Source: a virus | Length of the DNA stretch: 54,872 bases | Direction: 5' to 3' (one strand) | IMG/VR virus record: IMGVR_UViG_3300009285_002168 | Location: 1 to 54,872 of that record | Part shown: positions 13,680 through 41,939 of the stretch, piece after piece | How positions within the stretch are numbered: position 1 is the first letter of the stretch | Layout: the number at the start of each line of letters is the position of its first letter | Notes under the pieces: model-generated | Told to the model about the DNA's origin: nothing | The model's input: the letters and a program-made list of their open reading frames with translations, nothing else | The model's database searches: none | Program-made: the position numbers and the translations under genes

Positions 13680-13856
13680 CTACGCTGTCAAGAGGATAGT
13701 TCGCTCGCCGAGCATGGGTGTCTCGGGTTGACTGGCTCGCTCGCTGTCAATGGGTGTCTCACCGACCTTGGCTCGCTCAACCTTCTTGGGTGTCTCTTGA
13801 GAGATGGCGCGCTCCTGCCGTGTGGGTGTCTCGGCTTCGATGGCTCGCTCGTTCAT
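13680..13856 (-). CDS. ORF of the ETP/ERA repeat, array A
   Basis: A 58-codon frame in the same phase as the other repeat ORFs, starting at the in-frame ATG in MNERAIEAETP and ending ERTILLTA. Units follow ETPxxxERAxxx. It would be continuous with the C-terminus of the 13893-14255 gene if not for one TAG at 13893-13895. No good ribosome site precedes the ATG, so it may be a decayed C-terminal extension rather than an independent gene. Confidence 0.35.
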   Translation of the reverse strand: MNERAIEAETPTRQERAISQETPKKVERAKVGETPIDSERASQPETPMLGERTILLTA

Positions 13857-13904
13857 CGTGGGTTTCTCTTCGTCCCTGGCTCGCTCGCCAACCTATGGTG
13901 TCTC
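13697..13904 (-). repeat. 18-bp-periodic ETP/ERA repeat array A
   Basis: Twelve half-units at exact 18-base spacing (+ strand): constant 10-mers TGGCTCGCTC and TGGGTGTCTC alternate, separated by 8-base spacers that all differ. The edges are degenerate (TAGTTCGCTC at the left, ATGGTGTCTC at the right). On the - strand the array reads ETPxxxERAxxx in the frame of the upstream gene, whose last three residues are ETP. Confidence 0.92.
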
Positions 13905-14715: not shown

Positions 14716-15067
14716 GGTCTGCCCCCCTTCCCGTCCCTCGATCTGCTTCCTCCGGCTCTCGCGGAATGGCGCCGGTCTGCCCTTTCGGCGGGGCCTTGCC
14801 GGGTGGGCCATGGAGCACGGTCTCCACAAACTCCTCCGCGAAGGTCTCAAGCTCCGCCGCCTTCCCCAGCTTCTCCGCGAACGCCTGCCCCGCAAACATG
14901 TGGAGCATCGTCAGCTTCAGTGCCCCTGGCACCCCGGCCGCGTACCGCTCCAGCGCCTCGACCGGCATCTTGAAGTGCTTCCGAAATCTCGTGCCGCCAG
15001 TGGCCCGGAGCGCCATACACGCCTTCTCGATCTCGACCATCTCAGCACGGAGTCTCGGCACGGTCAC
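14705..15067 (-). CDS. Helical protein of unknown function after DUF115
   Basis: The product has 120 residues from GTG 15067, which overlaps the stop of the DUF115 gene (GTGA). It is strongly helical with AQ-rich and Glu-rich stretches (KLGKAAELETFAEEFVETV) and a Lys/Pro tail. Its tight coupling suggests a role with the DUF115 protein. Confidence 0.6.
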   Translation of the reverse strand: MTVPRLRAEMVEIEKACMALRATGGTRFRKHFKMPVEALERYAAGVPGALKLTMLHMFAGQAFAEKLGKAAELETFAEEFVETVLHGPPGKAPPKGQTGAIPREPEEADRGTGRGADHGI

Positions 15068-16329
15068 GGCATGCTCTTGTGAAGCCGCTCGAACCACGCC
15101 AGGTTGGCCTCTACGTCGATGGCCTCCTGCGCGGTGTCCTGATTGACCTTCAGCATGTACTTCGTCAGCGCCTCCCGCCAGCGCTCCGGCTCCCCGAGGT
15201 CCGCGAACCGTACTCCACCCTTCTTGAACCGCACACAGTAGTTGCCCACCCGCACCAGGTAGCGCTCGCAGGCAAGCATCTGCTCCTCGTTCGTCCTGCG
15301 CATGGTCTCGGGTATCTGCCCGCCCGATGCGATCATCTCCTCCGGGGCGATGTAGGGAACCTCGCTGATCGTACTATGCGGTGTCGCGCTGATCAACTGC
15401 ATCGGCTCATCCCGGTGGCATTCCAGCCGAGCCACGCAGAACATCGCGCGCTTGTAGAACAGGTTCATAGCGGTCGACGGATAGCCGTTCTCGCTCATGA
15501 CGATGGGCTGACTTTCGGGAGGAGGCGCCGTGATCCCCTCTTGCACCCACTCCCCAGCTTCCCAGTGCCAACCACGAAACCGATAGCGTGCGGGAAGCCC
15601 ACCGTCACCATCGCGCGTGAAGCCGAAATTGTGCCCGAGCATGAAGATCGGATTGTACCCGATGGCCCGCCCGATACCAAGCTCGGCGGCCGGTGAACAC
15701 GCGAAGGGGAGTAGTGCCATCTTGATGAAGTCGTAGGCTGTCGGCCAGATGCTCCAGTAGAGCGGGATCGCGGGATCGCGCGGCAGGTAGTAGTACGACT
15801 TCTGCGGCCACTTGGAGATCAGGTCCGGGTGCGTCCCTGGGTAGGCCGCCTGAACCGTCCCCGGAGCATCCTCCCACCACCCAGGGGGCACCTTGTCGAT
15901 TTCCTCCCAGTTGCATCGCACGTCGCTGTAGACGATGTGCGTCGGCCGCACACCGAAGCGCGCGAGCGTCTGCGCGTGGGACGAGCTGCAAATCAGCCCG
16001 CCTTTCCAGTCCTTCAGCATCGGCAGCACTTCGTCCAGCCCGGGGCCAGAACCCAGGATTACGGCTGGTCCCTTCTGCGTGTCCTCCAGGTCCTTCAGAT
16101 CGAAACCACGTCGGCCTCTCCACCCCGGGTCGTCATCGGCGTCCTGGAAGTCGAGCCAGATCTGCTTGTGGTTCCAGAACGAATGCCGGATCTCATCCGG
16201 CATGATCGCCGAGACGGTCGCCTGGTTGTAGTGCCTGGAGGGGTAGAAGAGATCGAACTCCGATGCCGCCTTCTTCGGCTCCACCGAGTCAACTGCCGGT
16301 TCTATACCAACTCCTTCGGTAATGCTCAT
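15064..16329 (-). CDS. DUF115 / MAF-type protein
   Basis: This 421-residue protein has a Rossmann-like motif GPAVILGSGPGLDEVLPMLK (about residues 87-106), followed by SSHAQTLARFGVRPTHIVYSD, matching the DUF115 family (MptE-like / motility accessory factor). Members take part in flagellin glycosylation with nonulosonic acids or act as pterin pyrophosphokinases, and phages often carry one near the terminase. Later segments (LGHNFGFTRDG) are also typical. It overlaps the nucleotidyltransferase-like gene by 41 bases, hinting at joint function. Substrate unknown. Confidence 0.75.
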   Translation of the reverse strand: MSITEGVGIEPAVDSVEPKKAASEFDLFYPSRHYNQATVSAIMPDEIRHSFWNHKQIWLDFQDADDDPGWRGRRGFDLKDLEDTQKGPAVILGSGPGLDEVLPMLKDWKGGLICSSSHAQTLARFGVRPTHIVYSDVRCNWEEIDKVPPGWWEDAPGTVQAAYPGTHPDLISKWPQKSYYYLPRDPAIPLYWSIWPTAYDFIKMALLPFACSPAAELGIGRAIGYNPIFMLGHNFGFTRDGDGGLPARYRFRGWHWEAGEWVQEGITAPPPESQPIVMSENGYPSTAMNLFYKRAMFCVARLECHRDEPMQLISATPHSTISEVPYIAPEEMIASGGQIPETMRRTNEEQMLACERYLVRVGNYCVRFKKGGVRFADLGEPERWREALTKYMLKVNQDTAQEAIDVEANLAWFERLHKSMP

Positions 16330-20859: not shown

Positions 20860-21225
20860 CCTTCGGCCCTGTTTAGGTCGTCCCACTTTTCGATAGCCCA
20901 GTTTCTCGAACCACGACACCGTGTCTTCCAAAGCCCGTATCCAATTTACCTCTAACCACCGCACTATCCATGCCCCAAGGCCGCTGTGCCGACATTGAGG
21001 CAACACATTCAGCACCAACAGCGTATTGCGTCGCGGATTCACTAGCGCGACTGCCGCGTCGTCGCCGCCGACACGAAAAAAAAACAGCCCGCCGTTACTG
21101 GCGTTTCGCATAACAGTTTCTCTCCCAACAAAAGTCGGATGCTTACCTCGATCCAAAAGGCGCTTGAATCTATCGTACTCGGCGCTTGAGCCGACTACGA
21201 CTTGCGGATGTGACGCTTCCCGCAT
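20773..21225 (-). CDS. GNAT-like acetyltransferase
   Basis: The product has 150 residues from ATG 21225 (GTG 21234 is also possible). The core pattern AVALVNPRRNTLLVLNVLPQCRHSGLGAWIVRWLEVNW resembles the acetyl-CoA loop and following helix of GNAT proteins (R/Q-x-x-G-x-G/A), and SWFEKLGYRKVG matches the typical FYxKxGF end strand. It overlaps the ParB-like gene by 31 bases; phage ParB-like and GNAT genes are often adjacent. Substrate unknown. Confidence 0.6.
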   Translation of the reverse strand: MREASHPQVVVGSSAEYDRFKRLLDRGKHPTFVGRETVMRNASNGGLFFFRVGGDDAAVALVNPRRNTLLVLNVLPQCRHSGLGAWIVRWLEVNWIRALEDTVSWFEKLGYRKVGRPKQGRRLRTQIMVREDLLTLSGRLQQLKFDESKR

Positions 21226-21749
21226 TTGGGGCACACACAGGATCCGATAGTCGTCTGAGATGAGTCATGATCCAGCTCTGCGGGTATCTCCATAATCGCC
21301 AGACTATCGCGTAAGCGTCCATCGAACTCCACAAGCGATTGGATGAGACTGTCATCTAGATAGATGCCATCCAGATCGATCATCTCCGTCAGATACGGCG
21401 CCAACAGACTCGCCTCAGGATCACCATGAATCGTATTCAGATTCACCGCGATACGTTGCGTTTGCTTTTTTGTCAGAGCAACGACAACTGCCGGTATCTC
21501 TTGCAAACCCAACTCTTGCGCCGCAAGAAAGCGATGATTCCCGCTGATTACCTCATAGCGGCCTGAACGCGCCCGTCTTACGAGAATCGGCACCAAAAAT
21601 CCATCTCTTTGGATCGACGTTTTCAGTGCCGTCATCTGCTTCTCGGTCAGATACTGCGGGTTGCGTCGCAAGAGATCGCACGATGTCACCGGAATCAACC
21701 GATATTCTCGCGTTCTTTCTCGTTGTTTATGAATCGCTGTCTTACTCAT
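21195..21749 (-). CDS. ParB-like protein with C-terminal zinc ribbon (copy 1)
   Basis: This 184-residue protein has the ParB/Srx-like nuclease domain: NPQYLTEKQMTALKTSIQRD, FLVPILVRRARSGRYEVISG, then NHRFLAAQELG (the GxHR motif as SGNHR). The C-terminus carries CVCPKCGKRHIRK, a zinc-ribbon half-site. The region is less GC-rich than most of the genome. It is translationally coupled to a 36-codon ORF upstream and to the GNAT gene downstream. Confidence 0.75.
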   Translation of the reverse strand: MSKTAIHKQRERTREYRLIPVTSCDLLRRNPQYLTEKQMTALKTSIQRDGFLVPILVRRARSGRYEVISGNHRFLAAQELGLQEIPAVVVALTKKQTQRIAVNLNTIHGDPEASLLAPYLTEMIDLDGIYLDDSLIQSLVEFDGRLRDSLAIMEIPAELDHDSSQTTIGSCVCPKCGKRHIRKS

Positions 21750-22488: not shown

Positions 22489-22637
22489 CAGCTCGCCTTG
22501 CCTTTGGGTATCATCGCAGCTTTCACGAGCCCATCAAGCCGACGGACGATCTCGCACAGCCGCCGAACCTGGCGAGCCGAGACATACGCCGGGGCCTTCT
22601 CGGCACGCAGCACGTCTACCTCTTCATCGTGTTCCAT
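22488..22637 (-). CDS. Small helical protein
   Basis: The product has 49 residues from ATG 22637, overlapping the ParB-like copy 2 by 14 bases. The sequence VSARQVRRLCEIVRRLDGLV is a helical basic motif. Possibly a DNA-associated accessory; unknown. Confidence 0.5.
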   Translation of the reverse strand: MEHDEEVDVLRAEKAPAYVSARQVRRLCEIVRRLDGLVKAAMIPKGKAS

Positions 22638-23448
22638 GCTTCGCCTTCTTCTGCCACTTCCCCTTTGCGGGCCGCACCGGCCGCACTGCCGCAAGCTGCC
22701 CGCCGATCTTCTGGAGGTCCGCCTTCAACGCCATGAGGTCCCCGCCCAGGCGCAGCTTCAACACGAGCGTCGTCCCGTCATAGACGTAGATGCCGAACCG
22801 CCCGTTCCACTCCGCCATCACCTCGCTCGGGTACTTCGCCGCGGCGTCATCATTCGATTCCCGCGATGCATCGTAAACCTGGCGAGAGCTCCACTTCTTG
22901 GCCACCGCTTCCTTGGCAATCCCGCGCGCCTTCTTCGGGTCCGCCATGGACATGCGGATGACGTGAGCTTCCGGCAAAGCGTCGATGTCCTTCGCGTCCG
23001 CACCCGCCTCGATCATCCGCTCACGGGACGCCACGTAGCGGTACTTCTCGTGGACCCAGTCGTAGGACTTGTTCAGAAGGTCCGCCGCCTCGCGCTGCGT
23101 CAGCCCGGGCAACTCCTTCCGCATCTCCTCGATGGCCTCCACGATCTCCACGGCCGAAAGCTGCCGTCTCTGGATGTTCTCCGTTAACCGCAGGATCGGG
23201 ACCTCCCGCTCGGGCACGTCCACGATGATGCAAGGGGCGATCTTCTGTCCGGCGTGGATGAGCGCCGCTAGTCTGCGGTGCCCGGCGATGCAGACGAACT
23301 TCCCATCATCCCGCCGGACTACGATGGGCTGAAGCAGCCCGTACTGCGACACCGACTTGGTCAGGTCGCGCACCTCCTCGTCTTCCCCCGGCCGCCGGAT
23401 GATCTTCCCGGCCCCGATCATGCTGACGGCGATCTCGCGGAACTTCAC
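22624..23448 (-). CDS. ParB-like protein with KorB-type helix-turn-helix (copy 2)
   Basis: The product has 274 residues from GTG 23448 (GTGA overlap). The ParB core motif is VCIAGHRRLAALIHAG, with RLTENIQRRQLSAVE following, as in ParB/Spo0J proteins. A helix-turn-helix follows (LTQREAADLLNKSYDWVHEK). The C-terminus is basic. No ParA is encoded in the window, so partition is doubtful; DNA silencing, nuclease or transcription roles are possible. Confidence 0.75.
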   Translation of the reverse strand: MKFREIAVSMIGAGKIIRRPGEDEEVRDLTKSVSQYGLLQPIVVRRDDGKFVCIAGHRRLAALIHAGQKIAPCIIVDVPEREVPILRLTENIQRRQLSAVEIVEAIEEMRKELPGLTQREAADLLNKSYDWVHEKYRYVASRERMIEAGADAKDIDALPEAHVIRMSMADPKKARGIAKEAVAKKWSSRQVYDASRESNDDAAAKYPSEVMAEWNGRFGIYVYDGTTLVLKLRLGGDLMALKADLQKIGGQLAAVRPVRPAKGKWQKKAKHGTR

Positions 23449-23585
23449 GGGCGCACCGCCGGGACCACCACGTTCGACAGGAACCAGATCGCCACACAGA
23501 TCGCCACCAGGACCAGCGCGCAGACGAATTCGGCCCTCTGCGTGGGTGTCAGCGTCCTCTTCCACGAAATCAGCGGTTTCAACAC
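23445..23585 (-). CDS. Single-span membrane peptide upstream of ParB copy 2
   Basis: The product has 46 residues from GTG 23585, preceded by AGGAGGT at good spacing. One span (FVCALVLVAICVAIWFL) is flanked by a basic N-terminus. It overlaps the ParB start (GTGA). A small envelope protein of unknown role. Confidence 0.55.
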   Translation of the reverse strand: MLKPLISWKRTLTPTQRAEFVCALVLVAICVAIWFLSNVVVPAVRP

Positions 23586-24093: not shown

Positions 24094-24163
24094 TTCCTCT
24101 CTCCTTCCGCCGGCCAGATTGGCCGGCTGATTCTGTTGGCGATGGCTACTGCCTCGCCGTGCT

Positions 24164-24731
24164 TGGCTCGCTCGCAAGCCTTGGGTGTCTCGCACGTGAT
24201 GGCTCGCTCCTCCACTTTGGGTGTCTATCCGTTCTTGGCTCGCTCCTCGATCCTGGGTGTCTCGTCGGTACTGGCTCGCTCCTGGTTCGTGGGTATCTCG
24301 TTTTGCCTGGCTCGCTCTTCGCGAATGGATGTCTCGGCCCCCATGGCTCGCTCATGCCTCTTGGGTGTCTCATCTCTGATGGCTCGCTCGTAGGACATGA
24401 GTGTCTCCCCTACCCTGGCTCGCTCCCAACCGTTGGGTGTCTCACAGGCCACGGCTCGCTCCTCTCGACTGGGTGTCTCTGACTCCCTGGCTCGCTCTGT
24501 GCCGTTGGGTGTCTCCATCACGATGGCTCGCTCCTCGATCCTGGGTGTCTCCGGAATGTTGGCTCGCTCGTCACGACTGGGTGTCTCGTGGCTCCTGGCT
24601 CGCTCGTCCCGCCTGGGTGTCTCGCCAAAGGTGGCTCGCTCACTTGTTCTGGGTGTCTCATGGAAGATGGCGCGCTCCCCGACACTGGGTGTCTCGTTGA
24701 ACGTGGCTCGCTCGCCGAGCGTGGGTGTCTC
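24164..24731 (-). repeat. 18-bp-periodic ETP/ERA repeat array B (main array)
   Basis: Thirty-two half-units at perfect 18-base spacing alternate TGGCTCGCTC and TGGGTGTCTC (+ strand), separated by 8-base spacers. All spacers differ except CTCGATCC, which occurs twice, both times after TGGCTCGCTC. A few cores are mutated (TGGATGTCTC, TGAGTGTCTC, TGGGTGTCTA, CGGCTCGCTC, TGGCGCGCTC). The right end is TGGCTTTCAT, which holds the start codon of the repeat ORF. Confidence 0.95.
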
Positions 24732-24749
24732 GAGCGAAATGGCTTTCAT
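24225..24749 (-). CDS. Repeat protein (ETPxxxERAxxx)n
   Basis: The product has 174 residues from ATG 24749, one base after the stop of the IS110-like gene. After MKAISL, it is 12-residue repeats ETP-xxx-ERA-xxx, about 14 copies, with three variable residues in each half. It stops because a core base change turns a GAG codon into TAG; three more half-units lie beyond. The protein is charged, with Pro every 12 residues, and probably extended. It shares MKA-xxx-ETP with the start of the IS110-like gene. Function unknown; the repeat may act at DNA or RNA level instead. Confidence 0.6.
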   Translation of the reverse strand: MKAISLETPTLGERATFNETPSVGERAIFHETPRTSERATFGETPRRDERARSHETPSRDERANIPETPRIEERAIVMETPNGTERARESETPSREERAVACETPNGWERARVGETLMSYERAIRDETPKRHERAMGAETSIREERARQNEIPTNQERASTDETPRIEERAKNG

Positions 24750-24750
24750 C

Positions 24751-25683
24751 TCAGGCGCTGTGCTTCTTGTTCAGGTATTCCTCCTGGTACGACGGCCGCA
24801 CCTCCAGCCCCTCCAGCGTCCGCCACGCCACGTATAGATCGCGCAGGAAGCACTTGACCATGTAGCGGTTCGCTGCTTTATGTTGGTGCCCCGCCTTCGG
24901 CCGCTTCGGGTCCGTCGGGTTCTTGCTCGCCGTCCCCCAGTCGCTCGACTCCAGCCGGTGCTTCATGTCGTCGTAATACCTCCGGTAGGGGCTGTTCGAT
25001 TTCAGGAACGATGACCCGAGCACCCCGAGCATCTTCGCCTTCAAGAACGAGTTGAAGGGGCAAACGAACCCCTTCGCCTTCTTGTCCCCCCGGATCATGT
25101 CCTCTGTCGCGACGAGGGTCCGCTCTCCTCCCTTCTTTTTCCATACCTTGCCGTGGACCTGCCCTGGGTTCATCCCGCTGAACTGCCACATTTTGCTCAC
25201 GGTCGTGGCGATGTAGATGTTGAACTGAGTGATGATGACAGCGGTCATCATCTCGCCGACGCCCTTCACGTCGCGGAGGAAGTCGATCCAGAGCGGGTGC
25301 TTGCGGATCAGCCGACCAACCTCCAACTCCATCTCGTGCTCCAGTGCGAGGATGCTGTCTCGGCGCTTCAGGAGGATGACGAGCATTCCAGGGTCACGGT
25401 CGGGACGGCCCTTTTTTGCCTCGCCGTCCTTGGTCATCCCGAGCTGGCCGTCCAGTGCCGTGCGCTCCTCCTGGTAATCGTAAAAGCAGCGCGTGAAGAT
25501 GCGAAGCGATTCCATCTGCTCGGGGGTGAAGATGCGCTCAGGTGTTCTGGGTGTCTCCGGTGTCCTGGCTCGCTCGCTCGCGCTGGGTGTCTCTACTTGT
25601 ATGGCTCGCTCGCTCTCAATGGGTGTCTCAACTCCGTTGGCTCGCTCTTTCTGCGTGGGTGTCTCGTGATCCTTGGCTTTCAT
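24751..25683 (-). CDS. IS110-transposase-like protein with ETP/ERA repeat N-terminus
   Basis: This 310-residue protein has three parts. Residues 1-48 carry ETP/ERA repeats (MKAKDHETP...) continuous with array C. About 58-125 form a helical region (RIFTRCFYDYQEERTAL). About 130-300 resemble the IS110/IS116 C-terminal Transposase_20 domain: helix-hairpin-helix RDVKGVGEMMTAVII, then KMWQFSGMNPGQVHGK, KAKMLGVLGSSFLKSNSPYR and a C-terminal helix. The RuvC-like DEDD N-terminal domain of IS110 is absent. It is coupled to a ParB-like gene upstream and to the repeat ORF downstream. Mobility is not shown. Confidence 0.65.
   Translation of the reverse strand: MKAKDHETPTQKERANGVETPIESERAIQVETPSASERARTPETPRTPERIFTPEQMESLRIFTRCFYDYQEERTALDGQLGMTKDGEAKKGRPDRDPGMLVILLKRRDSILALEHEMELEVGRLIRKHPLWIDFLRDVKGVGEMMTAVIITQFNIYIATTVSKMWQFSGMNPGQVHGKVWKKKGGERTLVATEDMIRGDKKAKGFVCPFNSFLKAKMLGVLGSSFLKSNSPYRRYYDDMKHRLESSDWGTASKNPTDPKRPKAGHQHKAANRYMVKCFLRDLYVAWRTLEGLEVRPSYQEEYLNKKHSA
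25548..25683 (-). repeat. ETP/ERA repeat array C, encoding the N-terminus of the IS110-like protein
   Basis: Seven half-units at 18-base spacing plus the start unit TGGCTTTCAT (25674-25683), which contains the ATG. Spacers differ from those of arrays A, B and D. On the - strand the phase is exactly that of the other repeat ORFs, giving MKAKDHETPTQKERANG and so on. Confidence 0.92.
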
Positions 25684-25685
25684 CT

Positions 25686-26390
25686 TCACACCTTGACCTT
25701 CGCCACGATCTCGCGGATCGCCTCGGCCAACTCCGTGAGCACCGCGATGGACTTCGCGTCGTACTCGATAGAGCCGTAGGCCCGCAGCGCTTTCAGCAGC
25801 ATGTGCGCGTGTGCCATCGGCGGGCTCCCGTTCGCCGTCCTTGCAAAATGCTCCTGTTCGGCATCCGCCTTCTTCCCGTCCAGATGCTTCACAAGCTCCA
25901 CCGCCGCCGCGGACACGGCGATCTTGCTCCCGTCCTGGGTCGTCAGCGACCGGCCCTCCACGAGCGTCCGGCACCGCTCCACGTCCATGTCCAGAGCTTC
26001 CGCGATCCGCGGCCACGGCACATGATCCCGGCGCATCCCGAGCGCGAAGTGAGTCACGTCCTTCGGCGTCAGTTGCAGGCTCCCGCTGTTGGCGAAGTGC
26101 GCCGCGTCGATCCTCATGGCGATCTCGTCCGCATACTCGCGCAGCACCACCTCGGTTTCCGCGTCTTCCCCGAGCACGTCCAGGTATGCTCTGCACCGGT
26201 GGAAACCGTCGATGATCCGCAGGCTCGCCGCATCCACGATGATCGGCGTGTTGAACTTGCGCCCCGACTTCAACACCTCGCGGAGCTTGGTGACGTTCGT
26301 TGAGTCGAGTTTCCCCGCTTCATGGCGCGGCCACAAATGCCAATCCTGGATCAGCTCCAGCACCTTTACGGTCTTCGTCTTGTCTCCCAT
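25686..26390 (-). CDS. ParB-like protein (copy 3)
   Basis: The product has 234 residues from ATG 26390. A ParB/Srx core is present: NTPIIVDAASLRIIDGFHRCRAYLDVLG, with GFHR as the family motif. It is followed by a helix-turn-helix-like region (TPKDVTHFALGMRRDHVPWPRIAEALDM) and a helical C-terminus. It ends two bases before the IS110-like start, so the two are probably co-translated. A longer upstream frame would run into array D. Confidence 0.7.
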   Translation of the reverse strand: MGDKTKTVKVLELIQDWHLWPRHEAGKLDSTNVTKLREVLKSGRKFNTPIIVDAASLRIIDGFHRCRAYLDVLGEDAETEVVLREYADEIAMRIDAAHFANSGSLQLTPKDVTHFALGMRRDHVPWPRIAEALDMDVERCRTLVEGRSLTTQDGSKIAVSAAAVELVKHLDGKKADAEQEHFARTANGSPPMAHAHMLLKALRAYGSIEYDAKSIAVLTELAEAIREIVAKVKV

Positions 26391-26487: not shown

Positions 26488-26640
26488 TTACTTTGGAAAT
26501 CGCTCAAATTCTGTGGGTGTCTCCCAATCCTTGGCTCGCTCCAACATGATGGGTGTCTCTCGCTCCTTGGCTCGCTCGCTTTTCTTGGGTATCTCGCCAG
26601 TGATGGCTCGCTCTTCGTGTCTGGGTGTCTCGCATACCAT
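26488..26640 (-). CDS. 50-residue ETP/ERA repeat ORF
   Basis: It starts at ATG 26640 (MVCETPRHEERA) and continues in the same ETP/ERA phase across array D, ending ERFPK. It lies between the helix-turn-helix gene and the ParB-like copy 3. The ATG sits in the position taken by TGGCTTTCAT in the other arrays. No clear ribosome site is visible, so expression is uncertain. Confidence 0.4.
   Translation of the reverse strand: MVCETPRHEERAITGEIPKKSERAKERETPIMLERAKDWETPTEFERFPK
26514..26631 (-). repeat. ETP/ERA repeat array D
   Basis: Seven half-units at exact 18-base spacing with alternating cores (one reads TGGGTATCTC) and unique spacers such as CAACATGA and GCCAGTGA. The next unit on the right is degenerate (TGGCCCGGTT). 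The orientation and reading phase match arrays A, B and C. Confidence 0.9.
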
Positions 26641-26651
26641 GGCCCGGTTCC

Positions 26652-41815: not shown

Positions 41816-41863
41816 GTTTTCTCCCCATCCGAAAACTCGGCGAGCGCTCTCGGCCCGCCGTCA

Positions 41864-41934
41864 AGCCAGGAGCCGGAATCGGACCGGCGTCCGCCGATTA
41901 CAGATCGGCCGCTCTACCGTTGAGCTACCCTGGC
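41864..41934 (-). tRNA. tRNA-Thr-like gene (anticodon TGT)
   Basis: 71 bases, no CCA encoded. Acceptor GCCAGGG pairs with TCCTGGC (last pair G-T); D-arm GCTC/GAGC with GG in the loop; anticodon stem GCCGA/TCGGC; loop TCTGTAA; variable GGAC; T-stem GCCGG/CCGGC with loop TCCGATT. Positions 33 and 55, normally U, read as C. This may be a true tRNA with unusual loops, a decaying copy, or one with altered decoding. It sits between the SSB gene and a 60-residue gene. Confidence 0.7.
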
Positions 41935-41939
41935 TATCG

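What the first reader, a model, noticed from the sequence alone, without database searches (positions are those of the whole stretch)
24164..24731. A 32-unit array of constant 10-mers and variable 8-nt spacers at perfect 18-base period
Seen directly: TGGCTCGCTC and TGGGTGTCTC alternate with no length drift; spacers are nearly all unique (only CTCGATCC occurs twice). Constant cores with hypervariable, length-fixed spacers are like a spacer store, yet the unit is far shorter than CRISPR repeats and there is no cas gene or reverse transcriptase. I know of no described element with this layout. Spacers could be copied targets, or codons under selection.
Basis: seen in the sequence. Interest (0 to 1): 0.92.

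Follow-up and report, generated by a model that had tools for sequence, protein, structure and literature searches.

The report
Phage TIGR guide-RNA array with TasA
The odd striped stretch of DNA is a phage-borne store of short guide RNAs of the recently described TIGR-Tas kind, sitting beside the small RNA-guided protein (TasA) and a ParB-like partner gene, so it is a real guide store, but a known type of one.

Summary
The array is real: 32 alternating 10-mers at an exact 18-base step, in a 54.9-kb tailed-phage contig. It is one of four such arrays in the window, all on the minus strand. Read on that strand, the true unit is 36 nt: edge repeat GAGCGAGCCA, 8-nt spacer, loop repeat GAGACACCCA, 8-nt spacer. 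This is the dual-repeat layout of TIGR-Tas systems (Faure et al. 2025, PMC12045711).

The gene directly upstream of the main array (24751-25545, minus) encodes a solo Tas protein. In the whole PDB its sequence matches only TasH and TasR, and its predicted fold matches those two best. Next to it lies a ParB-like gene, matching the published tasParB-tasA operon. The published Salicola phage CGphi29 TasH array (AAGCGAGCCA/AAGACAACCA) has almost the same repeats.

I catalogued 227 such arrays (1,987 units) in 123 loci, almost all from viral contigs. The exact pattern found no array in 84,980 cellular genomes. The "spacer store" idea is right in kind; "no described element" is not.

New details: units are gained and lost whole between related phages, arrays grow partly by unit duplication and divergence, and some arrays lie inside the tasA reading frame. 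Spacer targets remain unknown.

The parts
24153..24749 (-). Main dual-repeat TIGR array (the finding): 36-nt unit = edge GAGCGAGCCA + 8 nt + loop GAGACACCCA + 8 nt; begins with a 5'-truncated edge (ATGAAAGCCA, 24740-24749) and ends with a truncated edge (GAG)
   Evidence: layout as defined in PMC12045711
24751..25545 (-). tasA: solo Nop/IS110-like Tas protein, no nuclease domain recognised; the open frame continues upstream through the second array to an ATG at 25683
   Evidence: PHROG 4285; phmmer against PDB hits only TasH and TasR; profile hits TasR 1e-46, TasH 2e-41; AF2 pLDDT 86.9 and Foldseek top 11 all TasH/TasR
25535..25683 (-). Second TIGR array, between tasParB and tasA and in frame with tasA (ETPxxxERAxxx); truncated edges at both ends
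   Evidence: relative L144 has no array here
25686..26387 (-). tasParB: ParB-like gene operonic with tasA; homologues directly upstream of tasA in L043, L060, L107, L125, L128, L021
   Evidence: operon described in PMC12045711 sec. 44
26506..26649 (-). Third TIGR array, just upstream of tasParB
13689..13904 (-). Fourth TIGR array, 10 kb away, upstream of the terminase genes
24109..24127 (.). GC-rich hairpin (GCCGGCCAGATTGGCCGGC) just past the 3' end of the main array; no T-run on the array strand, so only a possible terminator
   Evidence: sequence

Best explanation
The array is a TIGR (tandem interspaced guide RNA) array of a phage TIGR-TasA system with an operonic TasParB. Its minus strand is transcribed with the phage genes into a long RNA, and TasA-dependent processing cuts this in the edge repeats into 36-nt tigRNAs (half edge, spacer A, loop, spacer B, half edge). 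A TasA dimer holds one tigRNA by the shared GAG...CCA ends of edge and loop repeats (the box D/box C equivalents). Spacers A and B pair with opposite strands of one about 16-bp DNA target. Having no nuclease domain, TasA most likely binds and bends targets rather than cutting them, perhaps together with TasParB, to bias maintenance of, or block, competing mobile DNA. Shown here: array anatomy, repeat similarity to a published TIGR array, Tas homology and fold, operon, strand linkage. Inferred: transcription, processing, DNA binding. Speculative: the biological role.
For: 36-nt dual-repeat units with 10-nt repeats and 8-nt spacers, truncated edge repeats at array ends, as defined in PMC12045711. 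TasA: phmmer over all PDB chains hits only TasH (2e-9) and TasR (7e-9); profile without the named-phage rows hits TasR 1.2e-46, TasH 1.9e-41, then IS621; AF2 model pLDDT 86.9, pTM 0.82, Foldseek top 11 all TasH/TasR, then IS110-family. The published Salicola phage CGphi29 TasH locus has an array AAGCGAGCCA-N8-AAGACAACCA-N8 and was a tblastn hit of the window protein. 83 of 123 array loci carry a tas gene in the DNA held; 161 arrays within 3 kb of tas lie on its strand, 1 on the other. Last base of edge and loop repeats covaries across 174 arrays, rho 0.86, as the paper reports for box C/D. tasParB-tasA operon in seven contigs as in the paper's section 44.
Against: No expression or small-RNA data. 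No DNA target found: spacer pairs in the TasR geometry are not enriched among held viral loci, and the window does not target itself. No U-rich terminator after the main array. Published TIGR arrays mostly have 9-nt spacers; 8 nt is reported for SpTIGR.
Confidence: 0.95

Rival explanations
1. It is an ordinary protein-coding tandem repeat (ETPxxxERAxxx, 6-residue period) and the DNA pattern follows from the protein.
For: The 174-aa ORF 24225-24749 and the 5' end of the tasA ORF read ETP/ERA repeats in one open frame.
Against: The cores are fixed at every codon position, including a fixed A at the first base of an otherwise variable codon. The array itself has an in-frame stop (TAGACACCCA). Relatives have 17/19/37-nt steps and non-open arrays, and the array at 13689-13904 is not coding.
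Confidence: 0.02
2. It is an array of DNA sites (iterons or a centromere) for a virus protein such as the neighbouring ParB-like proteins, and the 8-nt spacers are neutral filler.
For: Three ParB-like genes lie within 6 kb.
Against: Arrays keep the strand of the tas gene 161 to 1. Most array contigs match a Tas protein, but only a few held loci match TasParB. The published homologous arrays are processed to guide RNAs. Spacers are inherited as intact pairs between relatives.
Confidence: 0.02
3. A new CRISPR-like store with its own spacer-acquisition machinery.
For: In L073/L084 the trailing units are shared in order while the leading units all differ, as in CRISPR arrays.
Against: No Cas1/2-like gene noted; the effector is Tas. 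Repeat decay shows no general 5'-3' polarity over 96 arrays of at least 8 units. Within-array duplication with divergence explains part of the growth.
Confidence: 0.03

Closest known systems
TIGR-TasA with TasParB (Faure et al. 2025, PMC12045711, section on parB-like gene)
   Same: tasParB-tasA operon; dual-repeat arrays upstream, downstream and between the two genes; 10-nt edge and loop repeats; phage genome
   Different: Here a further array lies 10 kb away, and the intergenic array is in frame with the tasA coding sequence
SpTIGR-TasH of Salicola phage CGphi29
   Same: Almost the same repeats (AAGCGAGCCA/AAGACAACCA against GAGCGAGCCA/GAGACACCCA), 8-nt spacers, homologous Nop-type protein
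   Different: SpTasH has an N-terminal HNH nuclease; the window protein has none that Pfam recognises
IS110-family transposase (IS621) with bridge RNA
   Same: Related RNA-binding fold; weaker sequence and fold matches
   Different: No DEDD transposase domain; a guide array instead of one bridge RNA
CRISPR array
   Same: Constant repeats with variable spacers of fixed length
   Different: Two alternating 10-nt repeats, 8-nt split spacers, no Cas genes noted

Membership tests
TIGR-Tas | Two distinct alternating 8-12-nt repeats interspaced by short (8-12 nt) spacers, 36-nt unit | tested here: met
TIGR-Tas | Adjacent gene for a Nop-domain Tas protein | tested here: met
TIGR-Tas | Array starts and ends with truncated edge repeats | tested here: met
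   (ATGAAAGCCA start, GAG / GAGCG ends)
[quoted passage not shown]
   strong hairpin 24109-24127 without a T-run on the array strand
TIGR-Tas | Box C/D motifs shared and covarying between edge and loop repeats | tested here: met
   GAG...CCR in both; last base rho 0.86, 6 of 174 arrays discordant
TIGR-Tas | Processing into 36-nt tigRNAs bound by Tas | not testable with these tools
   needs small-RNA sequencing
TIGR-Tas | Tandem-spacer DNA targeting, one spacer per strand | tested here: inconclusive
   no enrichment of spacer A + gap + reverse-complement spacer B in held loci; natural targets are unknown for the family too
TasA-TasParB subtype | tasParB operonic with tasA and arrays around or between them | tested here: met
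TasH / TasR subtypes | N-terminal HNH or RuvC nuclease | tested here: not met
   no Pfam domain on window tasA; N-terminal extension is array-encoded
CRISPR array | Single 21-50-nt repeat with cas genes | tested here: not met
   two 10-nt repeats

The most novel reading that the evidence does not exclude
In some of these phages the guide array is part of the tasA coding sequence itself: just after the start codon in this window, in the middle of the gene in L003. If so, the effector mRNA is also the guide precursor, and guide processing destroys it, making TasA self-limiting. Array growth by unit duplication and divergence would then make guides without any acquisition machinery.
Probability: 0.15. 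Interest if true: 0.65.

Novelty: new member of a known kind. Interest (0 to 1): 0.5.

Why it matters
TIGR-Tas was described only in 2025, and its authors list the origin, maintenance and growth of TIGR arrays, and the natural targets, as open. This window gives a complete TasA-TasParB locus with four arrays. The search around it gives 227 dual-repeat arrays in 123 loci, almost all viral, with orthologous arrays in related phages. These indicate that spacer pairs are inherited as units, gained and lost whole, and partly made by duplication and divergence. That makes the array-growth question directly testable.

Tried and rejected
Protein-repeat reading: rejected (frames broken in relatives, fixed non-synonymous bases). 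ParB-site array: disfavoured (161:1 strand linkage to tas). Plasmid tblastn hits (Streptomyces, Aeromonas) look like amino-acid composition matches and were not pursued; both genome hits are lone chance matches without arrays. tblastn of the array-encoded ORF against named phages found nothing useful. The search for related loci with single TasA found nothing. Spacer targets: no excess over three other geometries in about 1.2 Mb of held loci, and no self-targets. Global 5'-3' decay of repeats: none. A plan to fetch 48 whole contigs for target search was dropped because held data showed no signal.

Full report
OBSERVATION. The array is as described: 32 ten-base cores at an exact 18-base step in 24164-24731, 31 spacers of 8 bases, one repeated. 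The pattern occurs 57 times in the window against 0.3 in shuffles. Three further arrays of the same unit exist, about 13689-13904, 25535-25683 and 26506-26649, all on the minus strand, like nearly all genes. The window is a viral contig with terminase, portal, tape-measure and Erf-type genes, a tailed phage.

ANATOMY. On the minus strand the unit is 36 nt: GAGCGAGCCA, 8 nt, GAGACACCCA, 8 nt. The two arrays around tasA open with a truncated copy (ATGAAAGCCA) and close with truncated GAG or GAGCG.

DISTRIBUTION. The exact pattern gave two lone matches in 84,980 cellular genomes, neither in an array. It gave 10 stretches in viral contigs, and a looser pattern at least 118. Over about 1,500 aligned copies the GAGCGAGCC core recurs every 36 nt, the second repeat is GAGNNNNCCR, and spacer columns carry almost no information. 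Each virus has its own second repeat, e.g. GAGAGTGCC, GAGAAAACC, GAGGGAACC. After removing duplicates there are 227 arrays and 1,987 units in 123 loci, 122 of them viral contigs or the window and one the Salicola phage record.

IDENTIFICATION. This layout is the dual-repeat TIGR array of Faure et al. 2025 (PMC12045711; [quoted passage not shown] The gene directly upstream, 24751-25545 minus, is a Tas protein. phmmer over the PDB hits only TasH (2e-9) and TasR (7e-9). A profile of 29 homologues, without the two named phages, hits TasR at 1.2e-46 and TasH at 1.9e-41, then IS621. The AF2 model (pLDDT 86.9, pTM 0.82) has TasH/TasR as its top 11 Foldseek matches, then IS110 transposases. Salicola phage CGphi29, the paper's TasH example, was found independently by tblastn with the window protein. 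It carries AAGCGAGCCA-N8-AAGACAACCA-N8. No nuclease domain is recognised in the window protein, so it is TasA-like. The ParB-like gene 25686-26387 matches the paper's tasParB; homologues sit directly upstream of tasA in other contigs, and the paper reports arrays upstream, downstream and between these genes.

LINKAGE. 83 of 123 array loci have a tas gene in the held stretch. Arrays within 3 kb lie on the tas strand 161 times and on the other strand once. The last base of the edge repeat covaries with that of the loop repeat (rho 0.86 over 174 arrays), as the paper reports for box C/D in a symmetric dimer.

ARRAY EVOLUTION. In L073/L084 (flanks 84-90% identical) six units are shared in order near the trailing end, with 0-3 differences in 16 letters, while the leading 23 and 9 units are unrelated apart from one shared half-spacer. 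L087/L118, L048/L091 and L096/L054 also share a few units in order. Across contigs, 26 unit pairs differ by at most 2 letters against none when spacer A and B are re-paired at random; 8 of these come from two stretches that are identical in sequence and probably the same virus, and 2 from two loci of one contig. So spacers are kept or replaced as whole pairs. Within arrays, 69 unit pairs differ by at most 5 of 16 letters against 12.0 (at most 21) in column-permuted controls, including a block copy in L081 (units 16-18 and 23-25). Duplication followed by divergence therefore contributes. Repeat decay shows no general polarity, so leader-end growth is suggested mainly by L073/L084.

CODING OVERLAP. 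In relative L144 tasA begins straight after tasParB (MKTVCCPDPDERFTPEMMESIR). In the window the array lies between MKAKDH and ERIFTPEQMESLR in the same frame. In L003 an array lies inside the tasA frame. 17 of 87 tas frames contain at least three repeats. The repeat cores themselves lack stops in that frame, so openness is weak evidence of translation.

MECHANISM. Transcription, processing and DNA pairing are inferred from the published homologues; TasA binding without cutting is an inference. Targets: none found, and no self-targeting.

VERDICT.

Noticed in passing
L073 9157-10381 and L084 7735-8311: Orthologous TIGR arrays share trailing units in order while leading units differ; the shared units tend to have decayed repeats, as in CRISPR arrays.
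   Followed up: partly
L081 array, units 16-18 and 23-25: Block duplication of three units followed by point divergence; array-wide excess of near-duplicate units (69 against 12 expected).
   Followed up: yes
L003 899-1990: A guide array lies in frame in the middle of the tasA gene, flanked by Cys-pair motifs (CMAC ... CKNC).
   Followed up: partly
L045/L135, L087, L118, L038, L022: Array repeats read in frame into the N-terminus of Tas as ERA/ESA repeats.
   Followed up: partly
window 21195-21749 and 22624-23451: Two further ParB_N-domain genes beside the TIGR locus, distinct from tasParB.
   Followed up: no
window 15064-16329: A gene matching MptE-like (PF01973) 6-hydroxymethylpterin diphosphokinase in a phage.
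   Followed up: no
window 41863-41935: tRNA-Thr (tgt) gene on the minus strand.
   Followed up: no
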